A stretch of 64,000 bases of DNA from Gemmobacter lutimaris (GTDB lineage Bacteria; Pseudomonadota; Alphaproteobacteria; Rhodobacterales; Rhodobacteraceae). A model generated the notes under the pieces. The model saw only the letters and a program-made list of their open reading frames with translations. It was not told where the DNA came from and did no database searches. The stretch covers positions 1 through 64,000 of the forward strand of contig NZ_QXXQ01000002.1 in NCBI RefSeq assembly GCF_003570715.1, read 5' to 3'. Positions 33,956 to 38,573 of the stretch are shown here, piece after piece. How positions within the stretch are numbered: the first letter of the stretch is position 1; every line of letters begins with the position of its first letter. The translations under genes and the position numbers were made by a program.

Positions 33956-35755
33956 ATGACCCAGCTTGACCGCATCCGCAATTTCTCGATCGTGGCCCAT
34001 ATCGACCACGGCAAATCCACACTCGCCGACCGTCTGATCCAGATGACGGGCACGGTGGCTGCGCGCGACATGAAGGCGCAGATGCTGGACAGCATGGATA
34101 TCGAGCGCGAGCGCGGCATCACCATCAAGGCCAACACCGTGCGGATCGAATATCCGGCGAAGGATGGCAATACCTACATCCTCAACCTGATCGACACGCC
34201 CGGTCACGTTGACTTTGCCTATGAAGTCTCGCGCAGCATGCGCGCGGTCGAGGGTTCGCTTCTGGTTGTGGATGCGTCGCAGGGGGTCGAGGCGCAGACG
34301 CTGGCCAATGTCTATCAGGCGATTGATGCGGGCCATGACATCGTGCCCGTGCTCAACAAGGTGGACCTTCCGGCGGCCGACCCGGAGCGGGTGAAGGAAA
34401 ACATCGAGGATGTGATCGGCATCGACGCCTCTGATGCGATCCCGATCTCGGCCAAGACCGGCCTCGGCATTCCCGATGTGCTGGAGGCCATCGTGAAGCG
34501 CCTGCCCGCGCCCAAAGGCGACCGCGACGCACCGCTGAAGGCCATGCTGGTGGACAGCTGGTATGACGCCTATCTGGGCGTCGTCGTCATGATCCGTGTC
34601 ATTGACGGCGTGATCAGGAAGGGCGACCGGGTCAAGATGATGCAGACCGGCGCGGTTTACGGCATCGACAAGCTGGCGGTGCTGAAACCGCAGATGGTGG
34701 ATATTCCCGAACTGGGGCCGGGCGAGATCGGCGTGCTGACCGCCTCGATCAAGCAGGTCCGCGACACCCGCGTCGGCGACACGATCACGCATGAGCGCAA
34801 GCCCTGCGACGCGCCGCTGCCCGGGTTCAAACCGGCGCAGCCGGTGGTTTTCTGCGGCCTGTTCCCGGTCGATGCGAATGACTTCGAGGCTTTGCGCGAC
34901 GCCATCGAAAAGCTGGCGCTGAACGACGCGAGCTTCAGCTACGAGATGGAAACCTCGGCCGCGCTGGGCTTCGGTTTCCGCATGGGCTTCCTGGGCTTGC
35001 TGCATCTGGAAGTCGTGCGCGACCGGCTGGAGCGGGAATATGACCTCGACCTGATCACCACCGCGCCTTCTGTGGTCTTCAAGCTGCACATGAAGGATGG
35101 CGAGGTGCGCGAGCTGCACAACCCCGCCGACATGCCCGACCTGACCTATATCGACCATATCGAAGAGCCGCGCATCAAGGCCACGATCATGGTGCCGGAC
35201 GAATATCTGGGTGACATCCTCAAGCTCTGCCAGGATCGCCGGGGCATCCAGTTGAATCTCACCTATGCCGGCAGCCGCGCCATGGTGGAATACGACCTGC
35301 CGCTGGCCGAGGTGGTGTTCGATTTCTACGACCGGCTGAAATCGGTGACCAAGGGCTATGCCTCGTTCGACTATCAATTGTCGGAATACCGCGAGGACAA
35401 TCTGGTGAAGATGTCCATTCTGGTGAACGACGAGCCGGTGGATGCGCTGGCGATCATGGTCCACCGTGACCGGGCCGAGGCGCGGGGCCGCGTGATGGTG
35501 GAAAAGCTGAAAGAGCTGATCCCCCGCCACATGTTCAAGATTCCGATTCAGGCGGCGATTGGCGGCCGTGTCATCGCGCGCGAGACGATCAGCGCCATGC
35601 GCAAGGACGTGACCGCGAAATGCTATGGCGGCGACGCGACCCGGAAGAAGAAGCTCTTGGAGAAGCAGAAAGAGGGCAAGAAGAAGATGCGCCAGTTCGG
35701 GAAAGTGGAAATCCCGCAAAGCGCCTTCATCAATGCGCTCAAGATGGATGGGTGA
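33956..35755 (+). CDS. lepA: Elongation factor 4 (LepA, back-translocating GTPase)
   Basis: 599 residues. Ribosome-associated GTPase with G1 [14 protein letters not shown] near 15-28, G3 DTPGHVDF near 77 and G4 NKVDLP near 131. The LepA-specific C-terminal domain ends [21 protein letters not shown]. Complete. Its stop lies 3 bases from the stop of the convergent nuclease gene, leaving no room for a terminator. The expected terminator is instead 860 bases downstream (36615). Confidence 0.97.
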
Positions 35756-35758
35756 GGG

Positions 35759-36547
35759 TTATTCCTCACCTTCATTCCATTGCTGCTGTATCATTGTTAG
35801 CAAGGCTTGCGTTGTTTGGTTGCGCTTTTCTTGGTCTGCAATTTGCAAGAACTCAATGTCAGAAAAGTCATCGCCACGCTTGCGATTCTGAGATGGTTCA
35901 AGAGATTCAATGAGGATGGCTTCCATCAAGGAAATTATCTGAGGAATACCAACAGAGAAATCTGGCTCTCCTAACTTTCCGGTAGAATCCACACCCTTCA
36001 AACCAAACCACGAGAAGCGATCCCAGCGACCGTTCAATCTGTCGCGCGTATGTTCAGACAGACGAACCCCCAAAGGCCTATCTACTGAGCGCCCAACGTA
36101 AATTACGCGGGATCTGTCATAGAGTAGGTAGATGCCAACCTGTTCGCAGAAGTCGATTGATTTGGCGCCTTGCTGTTGCTGTCCAAGTAGCCTCGGTTTG
36201 TGTCGCCAAATCACTTTGCTGGCGTGCCAATACATACCAACAGATTTAACGATAGACTTGGTTTCGATCTCGGATTCTTGATCGGCACTGCGAACCACAT
36301 CAATTTGTGCGCCAGTTTCGGACCGAAGCATAAAGATGCCCGGGTTTGTTTTTATGAACGGGCTGACTTCACCCTCATTTTTGATTGAATTATTAATCGC
36401 AACAAATACCGTATTTGCAGGAGTTGCGTCAAGAGAGCGCCGGAGTTTCATCTCCTCGATTTTCTCGGCAATTGTTTTATAATGTAAAGCCTGACCAGAC
36501 CGTGTGAGCACAGCTATGGCAGCTTCTTTCCATGCTAAGTCCGACAT
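35759..36547 (-). CDS. HARE-HTH plus GIY-YIG nuclease, probably horizontally acquired
   Basis: 262 residues. Residues about 5-75 fit a HARE-HTH domain (WKEAAIAVLTRSGQALHYKTIAEKI), the winged helix found fused to restriction nucleases and thought to read modified DNA. Residues 138-225 are a GIY-YIG endonuclease: GIYLLYD (138-144), YVGRS (150-154), R162, H166, the metal glutamate in MEAILIESL (E209) and N221. All catalytic residues are present. A linker (103-135) contains GMYWHASKVIWRHKPRLLGQ. The gene is visibly AT-richer than its neighbours and has atypical codon use. It lies alone between lepA and the lepA-side terminator. A lone nuclease or anti-phage function is inferred from the domains. 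Confidence 0.8.
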   Translation of the reverse strand: MSDLAWKEAAIAVLTRSGQALHYKTIAEKIEEMKLRRSLDATPANTVFVAINNSIKNEGEVSPFIKTNPGIFMLRSETGAQIDVVRSADQESEIETKSIVKSVGMYWHASKVIWRHKPRLLGQQQQGAKSIDFCEQVGIYLLYDRSRVIYVGRSVDRPLGVRLSEHTRDRLNGRWDRFSWFGLKGVDSTGKLGEPDFSVGIPQIISLMEAILIESLEPSQNRKRGDDFSDIEFLQIADQEKRNQTTQALLTMIQQQWNEGEE

Positions 36548-36614
36548 GTAGCTCTCAAGTGACTATGTTCATAGCAGTTTAGCTAGAGCGTTACTACTTG
36601 ACAACGTATCTGAC

Positions 36615-36640
36615 GCGGCAGGGTTTCCCCTGCCGCTTTT
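36615..36640 (+). terminator. Terminator beyond the nuclease gene, probably originally that of lepA
   Basis: Stem GCGGCAGGG/CCCTGCCGC with loop TTTC, then TTTT on the plus strand. Its T run faces the direction of lepA, although the HARE-GIY gene now lies in between. It could still end lepA and act weakly for the ETF-QO gene on the other strand. Confidence 0.75.
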
Positions 36641-36643
36641 GCC

Positions 36644-38287
36644 TTACATGTTCGGGTAGTTCGGGCCGTCGCCGCCTTGTGGTGTGGTCCAGTTGATGTT
36701 CTGCGACGGGTCTTTGATGTCGCAGGTCTTGCAGTGGACGCAGTTCTGGAAGTTGATCTGGAACCGCGCCTCGGCGCCCTCGCCGATCACCTCGTAGACG
36801 CCGGCGGGGCAGTAGCGTTGCGCCGGCTCGTCATACTCGGGCAGGTTGACGCGGATTGGCAGCGACGGGTCTTTCAGCTTCAGATGCGCGGGCTGGCTTT
36901 CATCGTGGTTAGTAAAGCTGAAGGCCACGTTGGTCAGACGGTCGAAGGACAGTTTGCCATCGGGCTTCGGATAGTCGATCTTCTTGAAGTCCTTGGCCTT
37001 GCCGGTCGCGGCCGCATCGGTCTTGCCGTGTTTCAGCGTGCCGAACAGCGTCAGGCCGATGGTGTTCAGCCACATATCGGCGCCGCCGCCCATCAGCGAG
37101 GCGATGAGGCCGAATTTCGACCACAGCGGCTTGACGTTGCGGACCTTCTTCAGATCCTTGCCGATCGGGCCGCTGCGCACCTCGGCTTCATAGGCAGCGA
37201 GTTCGTCGCCCTCGCGGCCTGCCTTGATCGCGTCAAAGGCGGCTTCAGCCGCGGCCTTGCCCGACAGCATGGCATTGTGGTTGCCCTTGATGCGCGGCAC
37301 GTTCACCATGCCGACCGAGCAGCCCAGCAGGGCCACACCCGGCGCCACCATCTTGGGCATGGACTGCCAGCCGCCCTCGCTGATCGCGCGGGCGCCATAG
37401 GCCACGCGCTTGCCGCCTGCCAGCAGATCGGCCACCATCGGGTGATGCTTGAAGCGCTGGAACTCCATGTAGGGGTAGAGGTGCGGGTTGGCATAGTTCA
37501 GGTGAACCACAAAGCCAACGTAGACCTGATTGTTTTCAAGGTGGTAGATGAACGAACCGCCCCCGGCATTCGACCCGAGCGGCCAGCCCATCGTATGCGT
37601 GACCGTGCCCTCGCGGTGCTTGGCGGGGTCGATCTCCCAGATCTCTTTCATGCCGATGCCGAATTTCTGCGGGCAATGGCCCTTCGACAGGTCATATTTC
37701 GCGATGACCTCTTTCGACAGCGACCCGCGCACGCCTTCCGCGAGGAAGACGTATTTGCCGCGCAGCTCCATCCCCGGCTCGTAGTTCGGGCCGGGCTGGC
37801 CGTCCTCGCCCAGTCCGAATTCGCCGGCGACGACGCCGACCACCCGGTCGCCTTCGTAAACCAGTTGCGAACAGGACATGCCGGGGAAAATCTCCACCCC
37901 CAGCCCCTCGGCCACGCCGGCCATCCAGCGGCAGACATTCGCCATCGAGACGATGTATTTGCCATGGTTGTTCATGAAGGGCGGCATGGGCCAGTTCGGG
38001 ATGCGGGCCTGACCGGCCGGGCCGAGGATATAAAAATTGTCCTCTTTCACCTCGGTCTTGATCGGGGCGTCCATTGACTGCCAGTCGGGCAGCAGCGCAT
38101 CCAGACCGCAGGTATCCAGCACGGCGCCCGAAAGGATATGCGCGCCGACTTCGGACCCCTTTTCCAGCAGCACGACATTCAGATCGGGGTCGAGCTGTTT
38201 CAGCCGGATCGCCGCTGACAGACCCGCAGGCCCGCCGCCTACGATCACGACATCGTATTCCATGCTCTCGCGTTCGATCTCTGCCAT
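36644..38287 (-). CDS. Electron transfer flavoprotein-ubiquinone oxidoreductase
   Basis: 547 residues. Membrane-associated FAD and [4Fe-4S] protein that passes electrons from ETF to ubiquinone. FAD-binding motif YDVVIVGGGPAGLSAAIRL near 10-28. The family C-terminus has the iron-sulfur cysteines YCPAG, CVHCKTCDIKDP (residues about 488-520), and the ending NWTTPQGGDGPNYPNM. The start at 38287 follows GGGGAG with proper spacing; an upstream ATG adds only ten residues. Divergent to greA. It links to fatty and amino acid oxidation. Confidence 0.96.
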   Translation of the reverse strand: MAEIERESMEYDVVIVGGGPAGLSAAIRLKQLDPDLNVVLLEKGSEVGAHILSGAVLDTCGLDALLPDWQSMDAPIKTEVKEDNFYILGPAGQARIPNWPMPPFMNNHGKYIVSMANVCRWMAGVAEGLGVEIFPGMSCSQLVYEGDRVVGVVAGEFGLGEDGQPGPNYEPGMELRGKYVFLAEGVRGSLSKEVIAKYDLSKGHCPQKFGIGMKEIWEIDPAKHREGTVTHTMGWPLGSNAGGGSFIYHLENNQVYVGFVVHLNYANPHLYPYMEFQRFKHHPMVADLLAGGKRVAYGARAISEGGWQSMPKMVAPGVALLGCSVGMVNVPRIKGNHNAMLSGKAAAEAAFDAIKAGREGDELAAYEAEVRSGPIGKDLKKVRNVKPLWSKFGLIASLMGGGADMWLNTIGLTLFGTLKHGKTDAAATGKAKDFKKIDYPKPDGKLSFDRLTNVAFSFTNHDESQPAHLKLKDPSLPIRVNLPEYDEPAQRYCPAGVYEVIGEGAEARFQINFQNCVHCKTCDIKDPSQNINWTTPQGGDGPNYPNM

Positions 38288-38573
38288 CCGCGTCTCCCCT
38301 GTGGCTACGGGCGCCACGCGCCGCTTGCTGGATTTGTCCGGGGTTTTGTCTGCCCCAAGGGAAAGCGCCCGTCAATCGTGACGCAACATCAAATCGCTGC
38401 ATCGCGGCGTAGGAGAAATATTCTTGCGGCAACTATGACGCAAGCATCCGCCCATCTGTCGTTTCCCTGCCGCGGCCCCTTGCATTTGCGGCGCCGGTGC
38501 GGTCTGGTGAGGCGAAGACGAAGGAGAGTCATGGCCTGGCCGGGCCGTGGCTTTGTTTTTTGGTGAGAGACCG

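What the first reader, a model, noticed from the sequence alone, without database searches (positions are those of the whole stretch)
35759..36640. Laterally acquired HARE-HTH/GIY-YIG nuclease inserted between lepA and its terminator
The gene is AT-richer than its neighbours, its stop is 3 bases from the lepA stop, and the terminator whose T run faces lepA lies beyond it (36615-36640). It joins a HARE-HTH domain, associated with modified-DNA sensing and restriction enzymes, to a GIY-YIG nuclease with all catalytic residues. It may be a single-gene defence nuclease acting on modified phage DNA.
Basis: partly seen in the sequence, partly recalled or inferred. Interest (0 to 1): 0.85.

Follow-up and report, generated by a model that had tools for sequence, protein, structure and literature searches.

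The report
Acquired HARE-HTH nuclease beside lepA
A foreign single-gene DNA-cutting enzyme, probably an anti-phage defence, sits in a chromosomal pocket next to the lepA gene where relatives often carry other foreign genes, several of them defence-like.

Summary
Window 35759-36547 (-) is a 262-aa gene, 46.5% GC between neighbours of 61-63%. It joins a clear HARE-HTH domain (46 bits) to a nuclease domain that profiles barely see but that carries the GIY-YIG residues and, when modelled, resembles UvrC and Hpy188I. Its stop is 3 bases from lepA's.

It was acquired: 1 of 11 genus genomes and 3 of 345 sampled family genomes carry the full-length gene. G001 (LepA 99.7% identical) has unrelated DNA between the same borders. 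The hairpin beyond the gene is not lepA's terminator; in G001 it is scored behind ETF-QO.

Relatives occur across many phyla without a recurrent neighbour, so the gene probably acts alone; HARE-less relatives of its nuclease lie in two restriction-type operons. The lepA 3' end is a hotspot in the host family: 25 of 57 genera have an AT-rich segment there (glyA control 0 of 39; other alphaproteobacterial families 1 of 37), holding diverse genes, some defence-like.

Best reading: a modification-sensing, type IV-like restriction nuclease. Cleavage and target base are untested; carriers show no clear avoidance of C5 or adenine methylases.

The parts
33956..35755 (+). lepA (EF-4); left border of the insert at its 3' end (last codon GGG here, AGC in G001)
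35759..36547 (-). HARE-HTH/GIY-YIG nuclease gene, 262 aa, AT-rich
36320..36535 (-). HARE-HTH domain (residues 5-76)
   Evidence: Pfam PF05066 46.4 bits; weak winged-helix fold matches
35762..36259 (-). catalytic module (residues 97-262): conserved GxxW...W segment followed by the GIY-YIG fold
36128..36136 (-). GIY motif, residues 138-140
36092..36100 (-). YVG (YIG-type) motif, residues 150-152
36062..36064 (-). R162 (82 of 82)
36050..36052 (-). H166 (82 of 82)
35921..35923 (-). E209, probable metal ligand (82 of 82)
   Evidence: role recalled
35885..35887 (-). N221 (81 of 82)
36576..36604 (-). sigma-70-like promoter candidate TTGTCA-17-TAAACT upstream of the nuclease gene, inside the insert
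   Evidence: 2 sites in the scanned region against 0.9 expected; weak
36615..36636 (.). hairpin at the right border; similarity to G001 resumes at 36615; scored on the minus strand in G001, on the plus strand here
36644..38317 (-). ETF-QO, right neighbour
   Evidence: name from the finding and recall

Best explanation
A laterally exchanged, self-sufficient DNA nuclease of the restriction type. Shown: HARE-HTH domain, GIY-YIG signature with a GIY-YIG-like model, foreign composition, replacement between sharp borders, no recurrent partner gene, and a location in a family-specific pocket at the lepA 3' end that holds other foreign genes, some defence-like. Inferred: the HARE-HTH domain recognises incoming DNA, most likely by a modified base the host does not carry (for instance a hypermodified cytosine), and places the GIY-YIG domain to cut nearby with a divalent metal and a tyrosine-activated water, restricting phages or plasmids without a partner methylase. 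The insert carries its own promoter candidate, and the gene also lies downstream of ETF-QO, whose hairpin has lost its minus-strand T run.
For: HARE-HTH profile. GIY-YIG residues conserved and UvrC/Hpy188I-like model. 211 stretches in GTDB genomes encode relatives; the 80 kept are 43-55% identical and come from many phyla. Within five genes of 81 walked loci the most frequent neighbour cluster is in 4 loci. HARE-less relatives of the catalytic module follow ResIII in G231 and ResIII plus N6_N4_Mtase in G033. Pocket at the lepA 3' end: 25 of 57 genera against 0 of 39 for glyA and 1 of 37 for other families; its genes include PDDEXK_13/REase-ARP, HNH, an OLD-like ATPase, TIR, DUF3800, DUF2971, Panacea and 8xMP. 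Winged-helix/GIY-YIG fusions with methylation-dependent cleavage are known biochemically (PMC11037411).
Against: No cleavage or phage data. PADLOC and NCBIfam do not recognise the window protein; members have only weak PADLOC matches, mostly PDC-S14. C5 methylases occur in 24 of 48 carrier genomes (host none) and D12 methylases in 20 of 48 (host two hits); the host also has two N6_N4 methylase hits: no clear avoidance of common methylation. PMC11037411 treats HARE-HTH base sensing as a suggestion. Of 30 pocket ORFs 17 have no Pfam match at E<=0.01, and of ten scanned singly against PADLOC five have no match at E<=1e-5, so the pocket is not shown to be purely defensive.
Confidence: 0.55

Rival explanations
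1. Restriction nuclease that does not read base modification; HARE-HTH is only a DNA-binding clamp, self DNA being spared by tight control or by host methylation.
For: HARE-less relatives of the catalytic module sit with an ordinary methylase and ResIII; carriers often hold C5 and adenine methylases.
Against: No methylase is a recurrent neighbour, so nothing adjacent would protect self DNA from a plain type II enzyme.
Confidence: 0.2
2. Free-standing homing endonuclease whose target is the lepA 3' end; it moves by cutting lepA and being copied into the break.
For: GIY-YIG-like fold; 5 of 7 host-family carriers lie right at the lepA stop in one orientation; the last lepA codon there is GGG in 4 of the 5 and AGT in the fifth, against AGC or AAC in 8 of 9 genus relatives without the gene.
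Against: Outside the host family no carrier has lepA in its fetched flanks and no recurrent neighbour was found; two host-family carriers are elsewhere (L003, L004); the pocket holds many unrelated genes in other genera.
Confidence: 0.1
3. DNA repair or chromosome maintenance nuclease (UvrC-like) without a defence role.
For: Closest solved folds are UvrC GIY-YIG domains.
Against: 3 of 345 sampled family genomes carry the full-length gene; in 55 of 63 carriers with background GC of at least 55% it lies more than 5 GC points below background.
Confidence: 0.08
4. Vertical inheritance at lepA with very frequent loss, not lateral exchange.
For: The 7 host-family copies form one clade (98/85) and 5 of 7 lie at lepA.
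Against: Copies at lepA have different right-hand neighbours and remain AT-rich in loci of 58-70% GC (window); in G001 the same interval holds other DNA.
Confidence: 0.07

Closest known systems
wH-GIY-YIG fusion endonucleases Ahi29725I and Apa233I (type IV, N6mA-dependent; PMC11037411)
   Same: Winged-helix-class DNA-binding domain joined to a GIY-YIG nuclease; methylase genes rarely adjacent (section heading of that paper).
   Different: Here the N-terminal domain is HARE-HTH by profile; m6A dependence untested. Their sequences were not at hand, so homology of the nuclease domains was not tested.
HARE-HTH + REase fusions in Dnd and BREX neighbourhoods (passages of PMC10853773, PMC12839542)
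   Same: HARE-HTH as predicted modified-DNA reader fused to a nuclease.
   Different: REase (in BREX PD-(D/E)XK) instead of GIY-YIG; here no recurrent neighbours.
Hpy188I (GIY-YIG restriction enzyme) and the UvrC N-terminal domain
   Same: GIY-YIG fold; best solved-structure matches for the catalytic domain.
   Different: No significant sequence match; Hpy188I is a sequence-specific enzyme and UvrC a repair subunit (recalled).
PD-T4-3, single-gene system with a GIY-YIG domain (one passage of PMC12409345)
   Same: Single-gene defence with a GIY-YIG domain.
   Different: The window protein has no PADLOC match at E<=1; whether that library holds a PD-T4-3 model was not checked.

Membership tests
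HARE-HTH domain proteins | Profile match over the curated cut-off | tested here: met
   46.4 bits, cut-off 25.9; 75 of 75 members of A1 match at E<=0.01
GIY-YIG nuclease superfamily | Signature residues (GIY, YIG, R, E, N) | tested here: met
   the list of defining residues is recalled
GIY-YIG nuclease superfamily | Profile match over the cut-off | tested here: not met
   13.2 bits against 22.4 for the window protein; 3 of 75 members match each of two models at E<=0.01
GIY-YIG nuclease superfamily | Fold | tested here: inconclusive
   ranks 1-9 are UvrC (7) and Hpy188I (2), best probability 0.95 and E 0.097; none with E<=0.001
Type IV (modification-dependent) restriction enzymes | Cuts only modified DNA | not testable with these tools
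   needs biochemistry
Type IV (modification-dependent) restriction enzymes | No cognate methylase partner | tested here: met
   no recurrent neighbour; hsdM-like genes in 3 and mod-like in 3 of 81 loci within five genes (names by eye, no profile run on them)
Type IV (modification-dependent) restriction enzymes | Carriers avoid the modification it cuts | tested here: inconclusive
   C5 in 24 of 48 and D12 in 20 of 48 carrier genomes besides the host; the tool's 14 control genomes give 10 and 4; no matched baseline
wH-GIY-YIG N6mA-dependent enzymes | DpnI-type winged helix | tested here: not met
   no DpnI-type model among the matches: HARE-HTH in 75, WH_GDS1 in 30, WH_Rok in 1 of 75; that Pfam holds a DpnI wH model is recalled
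Known PADLOC defence systems | PADLOC model match | tested here: not met
   0 for the window protein at E<=1; weak matches in other members, the commonest PDC-S14 model in 13 of 75
Homing endonucleases | Fixed insertion site across carriers | tested here: not met
   lepA in 5 of 7 host-family carriers; not in the fetched flanks of any other carrier

The most novel reading that the evidence does not exclude
The 3' end of lepA in this host family is an integration pocket, not found in print in my searches, where single AT-rich cargo genes, some of them defence genes, are swapped without a visible integrase by a sequence-specific process that rewrites the last lepA codon (a glycine codon next to 18 of 25 AT-rich flanks against 8 of 32 others), and the HARE-HTH/GIY-YIG nuclease is a recurrent occupant.
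Probability: 0.3. Interest if true: 0.75.

Novelty: new variant of a known kind. Interest (0 to 1): 0.6.

Why it matters
It adds a compact, widely scattered HARE-HTH/GIY-YIG nuclease family that would let the assumed modified-base reading by HARE-HTH (also a domain of ASXL proteins) be tested in a one-gene system. The lepA pocket gives a defined place to look for unknown defence genes in this family, and raises the question of how genes are exchanged there with no recombinase in sight.

Tried and rejected
lepA's own terminator left beyond the insert: rejected, since the same stem in G001 is scored only on the ETF-QO strand. A classical att duplication of the lepA tail at the far border: not found in general; best 24-base repeats average 14.1 matches against 13.8 in shuffles, with a few single outliers such as L135 (18 against 14.0) not followed. 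5mC or Dam-type m6A as target by genome avoidance: no clear avoidance. A known PADLOC single-gene system: no hit for the window protein. Sequence search of the PDB, single or profile: nothing significant. A partner gene: none recurrent. The lepA pocket as a general alphaproteobacterial feature: not supported, 1 of 37. The last-codon association is not corrected for kinship (p 0.0005), and the stricter AAGATGGATGGGT signature is weak (dip in 11 of 16 with it, 14 of 41 without, p 0.036). With the median of the whole stretch as baseline instead of 1.8-3.4 kb the dip counts fall to 21, 22, 16, 4, 1 and 0 of 57 for offsets 0 to 1500. Literature on a lepA hotspot: searches gave none that looked on topic; the 'lepA' passages were author names, the other hits were judged from listings only.

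Full report
THE GENE. Window 35759-36547 (-) encodes 262 aa. GC is 46.5% with third positions at 46.8%, against 61.4/84.2% for lepA and 62.9/83.7% for ETF-QO. Residues 5-76 match Pfam HARE-HTH at 46.4 bits, cut-off 25.9. The rest matches GIY-YIG profiles only below cut-off (GIY_YIG_2, 13.2 bits). Evidence for a GIY-YIG nuclease therefore rests on residues and model. In an alignment of 82 sequences (window plus 81 loci, one of them HARE-less) G138, Y150, G152, R162, H166 and E209 are invariant, N221 is present in 81 and Y140 in 80. The AlphaFold model of the whole protein has mean pLDDT 89.8, that of residues 97-262 has 88.8. Foldseek of the latter puts seven UvrC GIY-YIG chains and two Hpy188I chains in ranks 1-9, the best with probability 0.95 and E 0.097; no match reached E 0.001. 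The whole model gave weak winged-helix matches (Rok, RNA polymerase delta and others), Hpy188I and UvrC, again none with E<=0.001.

BORDERS. The stops of lepA and of the gene are 3 bases apart. G001 has a LepA 99.7% and an ETF-QO 99.3% identical in protein; in DNA the two flanking blocks are 89% and 94% identical. The last lepA codon already differs (GGG here, AGC in G001), the left block ends at 35757 and the right block starts at 36615, the first base of the hairpin stem. Between these borders G001 holds about 0.9 kb of other DNA with a 233-aa ORF of host-like GC (0.60). So this is a replacement rather than an insertion into an empty site. In G001 the hairpin is scored only on the minus strand, behind ETF-QO; in the window only on the plus strand. 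The assignment of this hairpin to lepA is therefore not supported. Of the nine genus relatives whose lepA flank was fetched (of ten; G007 was not), only G001 has ETF-QO in the stretch taken.

DISTRIBUTION. A match was found in 1 of 11 genus genomes; in the set of 61 relatives it was 3, two of those partial. Of 345 family genomes sampled 8 match the profile at E<=1e-20, 3 over the full length and 5 over the catalytic part only. In GTDB genomes 211 stretches encode relatives; the best 80 were kept, from Pseudomonadota, Planctomycetota, Verrucomicrobiota, Campylobacterota and others. Of 77 carriers with enough flank, 56 have the gene more than 5 GC points below their flanks and 8 above them; of the 63 with flanks of at least 55% GC, 55 lie more than 5 points below. 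The tree of 83 rows puts the 7 host-family copies in one clade (98/85); their identity to the window copy is 48-55%, and 45% for L072.

NEIGHBOURS. Clustering 608 ORFs within five genes of 81 walked loci (many with short flanks) gave no cluster present in more than 4 loci. HARE-less relatives of the catalytic module are 28-34% identical to it. In G033 one follows ResIII and an N6_N4_Mtase gene, its start overlapping the methylase's end; in G231 one follows a ResIII gene. In G231 a further gene overlaps the nuclease's end, so it is not the last gene there. Two Synechococcus phages carry a stand-alone module, annotated 'endonuclease II' in one and hypothetical in the other. A full-length relative sits on the 8.9-kb plasmid pDMC2.

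THE lepA POCKET. Four other host-family carriers (L002, L072, L134 = G131, L135 = G189) have the gene directly beyond lepA in the same convergent orientation (in L072 only the last 31 residues of LepA are in the contig). The far neighbour differs: ETF-QO here; by recalled recognition of sequence, a trxB-like gene beyond in L002 and an alpha/beta hydrolase in the other three, with a glyA-like gene seen beyond it in L072 and L135. L003 and L004 carry the gene elsewhere. I then took the lepA 3' flank from 60 family genomes, one per genus, of 121 with a hit, in descending order of lepA score, leaving out G026, G022, G112, G143, G146 and G131 on the way; 57 gave enough sequence. The first 900 bp lie at least 10 GC points below the 1.8-3.4 kb baseline of the same stretch in 25 of 57. 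By 600-bp window the counts from offset 0 in steps of 300 are 26, 27, 21, 11, 5, 2 and then 0; the zeros from 1.8 kb on are partly by construction, since the baseline lies there. Control: the glyA 3' end in 40 genomes picked by hand where glyA lay away from lepA, 39 usable, gives 0; in 37 genomes with both, lepA 16 and glyA 0, Fisher p 4e-6. Thresholds from 6 to 15 points give 34 to 19 of 57 against 4 to 0 of 39. Forty genomes of other alphaproteobacterial families, picked by hand among 96 with a hit (mostly larger genomes and contigs), gave 37 usable stretches and a count of 1; by 600-bp window up to 3. In 27 of 57 an AT-rich ORF of at least 140 aa starts in the first kb. Thirty such ORFs from 28 genomes (one a genus relative) were scanned: 13 have a Pfam match at E<=0.01, 11 of them over the curated cut-off, and 17 have none. 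Named families are PDDEXK_13/REase-ARP, AAA_21 with a sub-cut-off OLD-like TOPRIM, HNH, TIR_2 with AAA, DUF3800, DUF2971 twice, SocA_Panacea, 8xMP, Clp_N and HTH_3. PADLOC gives PDC-S31 in 2, a TIR effector model in 2, and Old-type and PDC-S59 in one each; of ten scanned singly, five match at E<=1e-5 and five do not, among these the PD-(D/E)XK, HNH and DUF3800 proteins. Five pairs of the thirty are related by BLAST, so the pocket holds many families. No defence-content control was run for other loci. The last lepA codon is a glycine codon in 18 of 25 flanks with the dip and 8 of 32 without (p 0.0005, not corrected for kinship); in the genus it is GGG in the window and AGC (6), AAC (2) or AGT (1) in nine relatives.

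FUNCTION. PMC11037411 (abstract, section 23, passages and outline seen) shows that winged-helix/GIY-YIG fusions cut near m6A, and remarks that HARE-HTH domains are related but more likely sense cytosine modification. PMC10853773 and PMC12839542 (passages) place HARE-HTH/REase fusions in Dnd and BREX loci. PMC12409345, PMC11347163 and PMC8432527 were seen as passages only. Aravind and Iyer 2012, the source for the HARE-HTH idea, was not held, so whether it already describes this fusion is not known to me. Genome avoidance did not single out a base: of 48 carrier genomes searched (49 of the 80 loci given, L038 not held) 24 have C5 and 20 have D12 methylases; the host has no C5, two D12 and two N6_N4 hits. 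A base that hosts lack, such as a hypermodified phage base, fits best but is inference.

VERDICT. Observation confirmed, interpretation partly supported. A new variant of a known kind (reader domain plus nuclease) in a host-family hotspot that I did not find described in the searches made.

Noticed in passing
L141-L200, downstream of lepA: The lepA 3' end is an AT-rich accessory-gene hotspot in the host family (25 of 57 genera), with restriction, OLD-like, TIR, HNH and many unknown genes.
   Followed up: yes
window 35750-35755 and L114-L200: The last lepA codon is more often glycine next to AT-rich flanks (18 of 25) than without (8 of 32); the exchange mechanism is unknown.
   Followed up: partly
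L161, L194, L175, L191 at the lepA stop: The lepA tail appears to form an inverted repeat with the bases just after its stop, like a terminator overlapping the gene end (read by eye).
   Followed up: no
L138:491-7945 and L136:986-8350: HARE-less GIY-YIG nucleases in operons with ResIII (both) and an N6_N4 methylase (shown for L138).
   Followed up: partly
L002:3103-3897: Copy of the gene beside lepA in a Paracoccus MAG has an in-frame stop; sequencing error or decay not resolved.
   Followed up: no
L131 (plasmid pDMC2) 2303-3055: Full-length relative on an 8.9-kb plasmid, annotated as HTH domain-containing protein.
   Followed up: partly
L122:3213-4016: Genus relative G006 has a different AT-rich 268-aa ORF without a Pfam match right after lepA.
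   Followed up: partly
L140:7089-7679: HARE-less GIY-YIG gene right behind a gene that looks like odhB in genome G368 (name recalled from sequence).
   Followed up: no
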